64,000 nt of DNA from positions 62,001 through 126,000 of the forward strand of contig JACYLQ010000026.1 of NCBI GenBank assembly GCA_015272395.1, given 5' to 3'. The notes below the pieces were generated by a model that saw only the letters and a list, made by a program, of their open reading frames with translations, was not told where the DNA came from and ran no database searches. The stretch is from Calothrix sp. C42_A2020_038. Lineage in GTDB: Bacteria > Cyanobacteriota > Cyanobacteriia > Cyanobacteriales > Nostocaceae. Position numbers and translations under genes: made by a program. Shown here one piece after another: positions 28,613 to 30,689 of this stretch (positions within the stretch are counted from its first letter, which is position 1; the number at the start of each line of letters is the position of its first letter).

Positions 28613-29665
28613 ATGAAAATATTTGTAAAATCATTTACCGTTAAAAAGCGATTTCCGCTGACTATAAGTTATGGTACAACAGCGCAAACAACCAATGTAT
28701 TGGTAATGATTTTACATGATGGTATTGAGGGGTGGGGTGAAGCATCACCGTTTAGTGCGGGAGGATATCCTTTCACAACTGACATGATTATAGAGGCTTT
28801 ACATACTTGTGAGCCTTTACTACAACCATTTAGCCCGTATCAACGCGACTGTATTGAACGGACTTTAATCGAAGCAAATATTATTAAACCAGCGCTCGCA
28901 GCAATAGATATAGCTTTACATGATTGGTTAGGAAAAAGTATTAATTTACCTCTATGGAAAATGTGGGGTTTAGATAGAGATGCAATTGTTCCAACTTCTG
29001 TAACCATTGGAATTAATACACCCAATGCAGCTAGAGAACGAGTTAGGAAATGGTTAGAATATACTAATATTAATGTATTAAAAGTAAAACTTGGAAGCTC
29101 TGAAGGTATTGAAGCTGATAAGGAAATGTTACTTGCTGTACGTGATGAAGCGCCAAATCAAGAAATTTTTGTTGATGCGAACGGTGGCTGGAGTTTGGAA
29201 AATGCGATCATAATGGGTAATTGGTTGGCAGCGAGAGGAATTAGGTATATTGAACAACCTTTGGCAAAAGGATGTGAGACCCAATTAGCCCAATTAAAGA
29301 CACAACAGCCATTACCAATATTTGTAGACGAAAGCTGCTTTACAAGTACAGATATTCCTGGCTTGGCAAATTTAGTCGATGGTATTAATATCAAGCTGAT
29401 GAAGTCAGGTGGCTTAACTGAGGCAATGCGGATGGTAAATGTCGCGCGCGCGCATCGATTGCAGGTCATGTTCGGATGCTATTCTGATAGCGTGTTAACA
29501 AATACTGCTGCTGCTCAAATTTCGCCCCTAGCAGACTATCTGGATTTAGATAGTCATCTTAATCTTATTAATGACCCTTTTTGCGGCGCCATCCTGCAAT
29601 CAGGGCGAGTGGTTCCTAATGACTTACCAGGTTTGGGGGTACAATACTGTGCGGCTAGCGCTTAA
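28613..29665 (+). CDS. enolase-superfamily dipeptide epimerase / DgcA-like
   Basis: About 350 aa. The muconate-lactonising subgroup residues are present: KVKLG (KxK base), FVDANGG, IEQP and VDES metal ligands, and IKLMKSGG with the second lysine. Family members epimerise L-Ala-D/L-Glu dipeptides from peptidoglycan or act on N-acylated amino acids. The following gene is DUF1611 and overlaps this one. That pairing is the one described as DgcA-DgcN in D-glutamate catabolism, where DgcA acts on N-acetyl-D-glutamate; this specificity is inferred from context. The start is taken at the ATG at 28613; a TTG at 28592 is the alternative. Confidence 0.85.
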   Translation: MKIFVKSFTVKKRFPLTISYGTTAQTTNVLVMILHDGIEGWGEASPFSAGGYPFTTDMIIEALHTCEPLLQPFSPYQRDCIERTLIEANIIKPALAAIDIALHDWLGKSINLPLWKMWGLDRDAIVPTSVTIGINTPNAARERVRKWLEYTNINVLKVKLGSSEGIEADKEMLLAVRDEAPNQEIFVDANGGWSLENAIIMGNWLAARGIRYIEQPLAKGCETQLAQLKTQQPLPIFVDESCFTSTDIPGLANLVDGINIKLMKSGGLTEAMRMVNVARAHRLQVMFGCYSDSVLTNTAAAQISPLADYLDLDSHLNLINDPFCGAILQSGRVVPNDLPGLGVQYCAASA

Positions 29666-30689
29666 TCAAAGGGTTGCAATTCTTCTACACGGCGGAATTA
29701 CTGGAACAATTGGAAAAACTGGGTTATCTCTGTTAAGATACAGCGAAGCCCCCATAGTTGCTGCAATTGATCGAGAATGTGTAGGAAAGTCGATAGTTGA
29801 ATTAACTGGCATCAAACGAGATGTTCCAATAGTTGCTTCGGTGGCTGAGTCTTTGCAGTTTCAACCCGAAGTTTTGGTGATTGCAATTGCACCCAAAGGT
29901 GGTACTTTACCTGATGACTACTGGCATGAATTGAAAGATGCCATCAAAGCAGGAATGTCGATAGTTAACGGGTTACATACCCCTTTAGAAAATATTCCTG
30001 AACTCAAAGCATTACTAAAACCTGGGCAGCTAATCTGGGATGTTCGCAAAGAGCCATCCAATTTGGGTGTGGCAAAAGCTTTAGCGGTTAACTTAGCTTG
30101 TCGTCGTGTACTAACTGTAGGTACCGACATGGCTGTAGGTAAAATGTCCACAAGTATAGAATTACATCATGCTTCGAGATTAAGAGGATGGCGTTCTAAG
30201 TTTTTAGCAACTGGACAAACTGGGTTAATGCTCGAAGGAGATGGGGTACCTTTGGATGCCATACGAGTGGACTATGCAGCAGGCGCCGTTGAACAAATGG
30301 TGCTAAGATACGGAAAAAATTATGATATTTTGTATATCGAAGGACAAGGTTCGTTATTACACCCAGCTTCCACAGCAACGTTGCCTTTGATACGTGGCTC
30401 TCAACCTACACAAATGATTCTTGTACATCGCTCAGGTCAAACTGAGGTAACAGAAGGCGTACCCATTCCCCCTTTGAGCGAAGTTGTTAAGTTGTATGAA
30501 ATGGTCGCAAAAGCCGCTGGTGCATTCAGAGGCGCCCCAGTTGTAGGTATTGCCTTGAATACATCTCACTTAGATGAGGTAACAGCTAAAGAGGAAATAG
30601 CCAAAGTCCAAACTGAAACTGGTCTACCTTGTACTGACGTAATTCGCTTTGGTTCCGCTAAGTTGCTAGACGCAGTTATGCGAAGTTAA
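29649..30689 (+). CDS. DUF1611 family protein / DgcN-like D-glutamate N-acetyltransferase
   Basis: About 346 aa from the GTG at 29649 (GGGGG lies 9 nt upstream), overlapping the epimerase gene by 17 bp; the frame is open back to 29571. DUF1611 marks are the N-terminal Rossmann-like half (VAILLHGGITGTIGKTG) and a P-loop-like segment VGTDMAVGKMSTSIEL in the C-terminal half, then IEGQGSLLHPA. Members have been described as N-acetyltransferases of D-glutamate working with the enolase-type partner. The translational overlap supports a functional pair. Whether the substrate here is D-Glu from peptidoglycan turnover is inference. Confidence 0.8.
   Translation: MRLALNQRVAILLHGGITGTIGKTGLSLLRYSEAPIVAAIDRECVGKSIVELTGIKRDVPIVASVAESLQFQPEVLVIAIAPKGGTLPDDYWHELKDAIKAGMSIVNGLHTPLENIPELKALLKPGQLIWDVRKEPSNLGVAKALAVNLACRRVLTVGTDMAVGKMSTSIELHHASRLRGWRSKFLATGQTGLMLEGDGVPLDAIRVDYAAGAVEQMVLRYGKNYDILYIEGQGSLLHPASTATLPLIRGSQPTQMILVHRSGQTEVTEGVPIPPLSEVVKLYEMVAKAAGAFRGAPVVGIALNTSHLDEVTAKEEIAKVQTETGLPCTDVIRFGSAKLLDAVMRS

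What the first reader, a model, noticed from the sequence alone, without database searches (positions are those of the whole stretch)
28613..30689. Overlapping epimerase-DUF1611 pair: possible D-glutamate catabolism in a cyanobacterium
The enolase-type and DUF1611 genes overlap and match the DgcA-DgcN pair that acetylates D-glutamate and then converts N-acetyl-D-glutamate. As I recall, that pathway was described from marine Proteobacteria and haloarchaea. Here it could recycle peptidoglycan D-Glu.
Basis: partly seen in the sequence, partly recalled or inferred. Interest (0 to 1): 0.5.

Follow-up and report, generated by a model that had tools for sequence, protein, structure and literature searches.

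The report
Cyanobacterial relative of D-glutamate salvage pair
Two overlapping genes in this cyanobacterium encode distant relatives of a known enzyme pair that acetylates D-glutamate and flips it to the L form; the partnership is old and nearly inseparable in cyanobacteria, but its substrate cannot be settled from sequence because the flipping enzyme's pocket differs from that of the tested enzymes.

Summary
Observation confirmed. An enolase-superfamily epimerase (28613-29665, +) overlaps a DUF1611 gene (most likely GTG 29649-30689, 17-nt overlap). Best NCBIfam hits are DgcA (198 bits, cut-off 400) and DgcN (217 bits, cut-off 480). Both fall far below the equivalog cut-offs, as in all 146 cyanobacterial genomes searched.
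The pair is phylum-wide: 86 of 86 genomes with the epimerase also have DUF1611, and 79 of 81 with main-type DUF1611 have the epimerase, including 19 where the genes are not adjacent. The cyanobacterial DUF1611 is sister to DgcN and keeps residues that other DUF1611 groups lack. The epimerase's catalytic residues are intact, but its pocket loops (GCYSDS, DLDSHLN) match neither DgcA nor tested dipeptide epimerases, and the window's whole genus has Tyr where nearly all other cyanobacteria and DgcA have Arg.
Best reading: a Dgc-like acetylate-then-racemise module, D-Glu being the likeliest but unproven substrate, possibly yielding N-acetyl-L-glutamate. A dipeptide-epimerase role is not excluded: E. 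coli YcjG falls inside the DgcA clade.
In passing: another cyanobacterial DUF1611 lineage is paired with an Orr-type PLP racemase in 13 of 13 intact loci.

The parts
28613..29665 (+). Enolase-superfamily epimerase/racemase, DgcA/dipeptide-epimerase-like (MR_MLE_N + MR_MLE_C), 350 aa
   Evidence: PF02746, PF13378; NF042940 198 bits against a cut-off of 400; closest solved structure 3IJI, 2.8e-59
29649..30689 (+). DUF1611 protein, DgcN-like putative N-acetyltransferase (start GTG 29649 most likely; first ATG of the frame 29571)
   Evidence: PF17396, PF07755; NF041892 217 bits against a cut-off of 480; Anabaena 2OBN 5.8e-170; start choice
29081..29089 (+). Epimerase KxK motif (K164, K166 of the ORF numbered from TTG 28592), catalytic base
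   Evidence: Invariant in all aligned relatives
28670..28672 (+). Tyr27 codon (tat) in the 20s specificity loop; Arg in other cyanobacteria and in DgcA
29474..29491 (+). GCYSDS loop (295-300), signature of the cyanobacterial clade, differs from DgcA/YcjG GCM[VLI][GC][ST]
29543..29563 (+). DLDSHLN (318-324): DxD motif followed by a clade-specific SHLN
30120..30143 (+). DUF1611 P-loop-like motif GTDMAVGK
   Evidence: GTD and GK invariant in all DUF1611 groups compared
30645..30647 (+). DUF1611 Arg359 (ORF numbered from 29571), shared by all cyanobacterial main-type and DgcN sequences, absent from the other groups compared

Best explanation
A cyanobacterial acetylate-then-racemise module of the Dgc kind. 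The DUF1611 protein N-acetylates a free D-amino acid with acetyl-CoA; the enolase-type partner then racemises the N-acetyl amino acid by the usual Mg-assisted two-lysine mechanism. D-glutamate is the likeliest substrate, so the product would be N-acetyl-L-glutamate, which could enter arginine synthesis or give up its acetyl group. Shown: the two gene families, intact catalytic residues, near-obligate co-occurrence, sister position of the DUF1611 to DgcN. Inferred: acetyl transfer, D-Glu as substrate, direction and fate of the product.
For: Best NCBIfam hits DgcA and DgcN. 86 of 86 epimerase-bearing genomes also have DUF1611, including cases where the genes are apart; in six families the pair is patchy and both genes are present or absent together. 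Main-type cyanobacterial DUF1611 is sister to DgcN (100/96) and shares N330-T331, Q278, D356 and R359 with it. All catalytic residues of the epimerase are intact. Glutamate racemase and ArgJ are in the genome.
Against: Both proteins are far below the equivalog cut-offs. The epimerase pocket differs from DgcA and the genus of the window has lost the loop Arg. YcjG, a tested L-Ala-D/L-Glu epimerase, lies inside the DgcA clade, so relatedness to DgcA does not fix the substrate. No activity is known for any cyanobacterial member in the literature I could search.
Confidence: 0.45

Rival explanations
1. Same chemistry, different substrate: the module acetylates and racemises an amino acid other than D-Glu (for example D-Asp, D-Gln or a non-proteinogenic D-amino acid), the altered pocket loops and the Tyr27 of this genus setting the specificity.
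For: Clade-specific GCYSDS and SHLN in the epimerase; loss of the loop Arg in the whole genus and one other genus; DUF1611 is found with three different kinds of racemase. [quoted passage not shown]
Against: DUF1611 of this clade keeps the residues it shares with DgcN and not with other lineages.
Confidence: 0.27
2. [quoted passage not shown]
For: DxD motif present; E. coli YcjG groups with DgcA; the closest solved structure is the Bacteroides enzyme 3IJI, a dipeptide epimerase as I recall; cyanobacteria have the endopeptidase (PMC2954226) and the genome has its SH3b domain.
Against: The DxD motif is equally present in DgcA. The epimerase is never found without DUF1611 in 86 genomes, unlike E. 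coli and B. subtilis, where the control searches show the epimerase family but no DUF1611. The endopeptidase domain does not track the pair.
Confidence: 0.18
3. A true DgcN-DgcA pathway for catabolism of external D-glutamate, as in marine Proteobacteria.
For: Family-level match.
Against: Below equivalog cut-offs, separate clades in both trees, reversed gene order, no dgcR or transporter beside it.
Confidence: 0.1

Closest known systems
DgcN-DgcA D-glutamate pathway (NF041892, NF042940; Yu et al. 2023, ISME J 17:537, as cited in PMC12363236; the paper itself could not be read here)
   Same: Same two protein families, tightly linked genes, DUF1611 sister to DgcN, intact racemase catalytic residues
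   Different: About half the equivalog score, reversed gene order (epimerase first), no dgcR, different epimerase pocket loops, separate clades
L-Ala-D/L-Glu epimerases YcjG (1JPD) and YkfB (1JPM)
   Same: Fold, two catalytic lysines, metal ligands, DxD motif
   Different: Pocket loops differ; those enzymes occur without DUF1611 in E. coli and B. subtilis
Bacteroides enzyme 3IJI/3IJL/3IJQ
   Same: Closest solved structure to the window epimerase (2.8e-59)
   Different: Lacks the ISRGT-type loop and the GCYSDS/SHLN signature; the Bacteroides control genome has no DUF1611 hit
2OBN, Anabaena DUF1611 structure (deposited as hypothetical protein)
   Same: Orthologue of the window DUF1611, 75% identical
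   Different: No assigned function

Membership tests
DgcN (D-glutamate N-acetyltransferase, NF041892) | Score over the curated equivalog cut-off (480 bits) | tested here: not met
   217 bits; 0 of 146 cyanobacterial genomes over the cut-off
DgcN (D-glutamate N-acetyltransferase, NF041892) | Falls in the DgcN clade | tested here: not met
   Sister clade, not inside
DgcN (D-glutamate N-acetyltransferase, NF041892) | Residues invariant in DgcN and shared by few other DUF1611 groups (N330, T331, Q278, D356, R359) | tested here: met
   their role in D-Glu binding is not known
DgcN (D-glutamate N-acetyltransferase, NF041892) | Acetyl-CoA-dependent acetylation of D-Glu | not testable with these tools
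   Needs purified protein
DgcA (N-acetyl-D-Glu racemase, NF042940) | Score over the curated equivalog cut-off (400 bits) | tested here: not met
   198 bits; 0 of 146 cyanobacterial genomes over the cut-off
DgcA (N-acetyl-D-Glu racemase, NF042940) | Two catalytic lysines and three metal ligands | tested here: met
   K164/K166, K268, D195, E221, D246
DgcA (N-acetyl-D-Glu racemase, NF042940) | DgcA-type pocket loops (ISRG[ST][RK], GCM[VLI][GC][ST], DLDGP) | tested here: not met
   Window has ISYGTT, GCYSDS, DLDSHLN
DgcN-DgcA pathway | Genes linked and co-occurring | tested here: met
   86 of 86 co-occurrence, 60 of 81 adjacent; order reversed relative to dgcN-dgcA
L-Ala-D/L-Glu epimerase | DxD motif after the eighth strand | tested here: met
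   D318-x-D320; but also present in DgcA, so not diagnostic
L-Ala-D/L-Glu epimerase | Genomic link to murein peptide enzymes | tested here: not met
   No such gene immediately beside the pair; endopeptidase SH3b domain does not track it
L-Ala-D/L-Glu epimerase | Epimerisation of L-Ala-D/L-Glu | not testable with these tools
   Needs purified protein

The most novel reading that the evidence does not exclude
DUF1611 is a general partner for racemases: an N-acetyltransferase that locks one enantiomer, recruited by at least three kinds of racemase (DgcA-like enolase type, 3RIT-like enolase type, Orr-type PLP racemase). The cyanobacterial pair is one branch with its own, not yet identified substrate.
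Probability: 0.35. Interest if true: 0.6.

Novelty: new variant of a known kind. Interest (0 to 1): 0.45.

Why it matters
If the module makes N-acetyl-L-glutamate from D-Glu, cyanobacteria would have a route into the arginine pathway that starts from a D-amino acid, and a protein family whose cyanobacterial member has a crystal structure (2OBN) but no role would gain one. The survey also warns that these epimerases cannot be annotated by sequence alone as dipeptide epimerases or as DgcA, because a tested dipeptide epimerase sits inside the DgcA clade; presence of DUF1611 is the more informative clue.

Tried and rejected
Anti-phage defence: no PADLOC hits. Operon with the P450/LmeA/DUF1400 neighbours: conserved only within the genus, so not part of the module. 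DxD motif as a test of dipeptide against N-acetyl substrate: useless, present in both. Single-sequence AlphaFold model of the epimerase: mean pLDDT 44.6, discarded. A 24,637-aa open frame around a DUF1611 hit in G111: artefact of masked N. A second enolase-type gene in the own genome (G000:C35:54514-55419, L122) is muconate-cycloisomerase-like and lacks the DxD motif, so it is not a second DgcA. The primary DgcN-DgcA paper and the dipeptide-epimerase specificity paper are not in the library, so published residue assignments could not be checked; the idea that basic residues of the 20s loop bind the substrate's side-chain carboxylate rests on my own knowledge of YkfB/YcjG. The epimerase tree is the quick version only. 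The co-occurrence p-value (8e-35) ignores relatedness; the within-family contrasts are the better argument.

Full report
WHAT IS THERE. The two genes exist as described. The epimerase ORF ends at 29665; ATG 28613 is the start that aligns with homologues. It has the two mandelate racemase/muconate lactonizing domains, and the second ORF has both DUF1611 domains. The first ATG of the DUF1611 frame (29571) lies deep in the epimerase, but the solved Anabaena orthologue 2OBN begins at the residue encoded by GTG 29649, and several relatives have their first usable start at -16/-17 from the epimerase stop. The overlap is therefore most likely 17 nt.

FAMILY LEVEL. NCBIfam's best hits are DgcA (N-acetyl-D-Glu racemase, 198 bits, cut-off 400) and DgcN (N-acetyltransferase, 217 bits, cut-off 480). 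In 146 genomes of the same class none exceeds either cut-off, so this is a phylum-wide relative and not a scattered transfer of the proteobacterial genes. In the DUF1611 tree the main-type cyanobacterial sequences form one clade, sister to DgcN with 100/96 support among the groups sampled; haloarchaeal, Thermotoga, Vibrio and second-type cyanobacterial sequences lie outside (the Thermotoga and haloarchaeal rows are on long branches). In the epimerase tree (quick method only) the cyanobacterial clade groups with DgcA and the Bacteroides enzyme 3IJI, and the E. coli dipeptide epimerase YcjG falls inside the DgcA clade. Epimerase phylogeny therefore cannot tell an N-acetyl-Glu racemase from a dipeptide epimerase.

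CO-OCCURRENCE. Of the 146 genomes, 86 have the epimerase (over 140 bits) and all 86 have a DUF1611; 5 have DUF1611 without it; 55 have neither. Of 81 genomes with the main-type DUF1611, 60 have the epimerase directly upstream, always in that order; in 19 of the other 21 both genes are present but not directly adjacent. Of the two exceptions, G095 has its epimerase-like match split into two overlapping fragments and G114 is a draft of about 380 contigs. In six families where the pair is patchy (f1, f8, f22, f23, f25, f34) the two genes are present or absent together. E. coli and B. subtilis, with tested dipeptide epimerases, show the epimerase family but no DUF1611 in the control searches. This is the best evidence that the cyanobacterial epimerase works with DUF1611 and not alone.

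RESIDUES. Numbering is from TTG 28592 for the epimerase and from ATG 29571 for DUF1611. The catalytic residues of the epimerase are intact (K164, K166, D195, E221, D246, K268), and so is D318-x-D320. DxD is also present in canonical DgcA, so it says nothing on dipeptides. The cyanobacterial clade has its own pocket signature: GCYSDS where DgcA/YcjG have GCM[VLI][GC][ST], and SHLN after the DxD where DgcA mostly has GPLL. In the 20s loop DgcA and YcjG have two basic residues (for example ISRGSR); the cyanobacteria keep the first only (ISRGTT), and the window has neither (ISYGTT). The Tyr is no sequencing error: it is in all seven genomes of the genus examined and in one other genus of the family. 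DUF1611 points the other way: its N330-T331, Q278, D356 and R359 are shared with DgcN and are missing, wholly or largely, from the haloarchaeal, Orr-paired and 3RIT-type lineages. So one protein resembles its Dgc counterpart at group-specific positions and the other does not.

CELL CONTEXT. The genome has glutamate racemase, ornithine acetyltransferase ArgJ and the SH3b domain typical of the cyanobacterial L-Ala-gamma-D-Glu endopeptidase (PMC2954226). D-Glu, a use for N-acetyl-L-Glu, and a source of L-Ala-D-Glu are therefore all plausible. The endopeptidase domain does not track the pair: it is in 136 of 146 genomes and is not detected in six that have the main-type pair intact (G004, G028, G065, G075, G086, G142). 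A specific link to murein recycling is thus not supported. The other neighbours (P450, LmeA, DUF1400) are conserved only within the genus.

OTHER DUF1611 PAIRS. A second cyanobacterial DUF1611 lineage, sister to a Vibrio europaeus gene, is followed directly by an Orr-type PLP racemase in 13 of 13 intact loci. In the nine of these racemases scanned (eight cyanobacterial, one Vibrio) NF040742 scores 367-407 bits against a cut-off of 480. A third lineage, in six genomes, precedes an enolase-type epimerase that groups with Methylococcus 3RIT. A PLP racemase needs a free amine, so there the racemase must act before any acetylation, and DUF1611 might trap one enantiomer. This is inference.

VERDICT. 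'Works like Dgc' is my best explanation (0.45); the substrate remains open. It is a widespread cyanobacterial module and not an oddity of this genome. The presence of AEE-type genes in cyanobacteria was already noted in 2013 (PMC3605383), without the DUF1611 link in the passages I read.

Noticed in passing
L215-L222, L229-L233 (cyanobacteria), L117:3800-6084 (Vibrio europaeus plasmid): A separate DUF1611 lineage is directly followed by an Orr-type (alanine/ornithine racemase family) PLP racemase in 13 of 13 intact cyanobacterial loci and in Vibrio europaeus.
   Followed up: partly
L154-L157 (G088, G013, G106, G078; also G032, G068): A third DUF1611 lineage precedes an enolase-type epimerase that groups with Methylococcus 3RIT.
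   Followed up: partly
window 28670-28672; L185-L191, L202: Arg27 to Tyr in the epimerase 20s loop, fixed in the window's genus and also in one other genus of the family.
   Followed up: partly
L113, L115 (Sinorhizobium meliloti pSymA): DgcN-like genes with no dgcA annotated beside them; L115 scores over the DgcN cut-off.
   Followed up: no
G000:C35:54514-55419 (L122), outside the window: A second enolase-type gene, muconate-cycloisomerase-like, without the DxD motif.
   Followed up: partly
G111:C2:36000-43500 (L182): A reported 24,637-aa open frame is an artefact of a masked stretch (3,500 N in the 7.5 kb fetched).
   Followed up: yes
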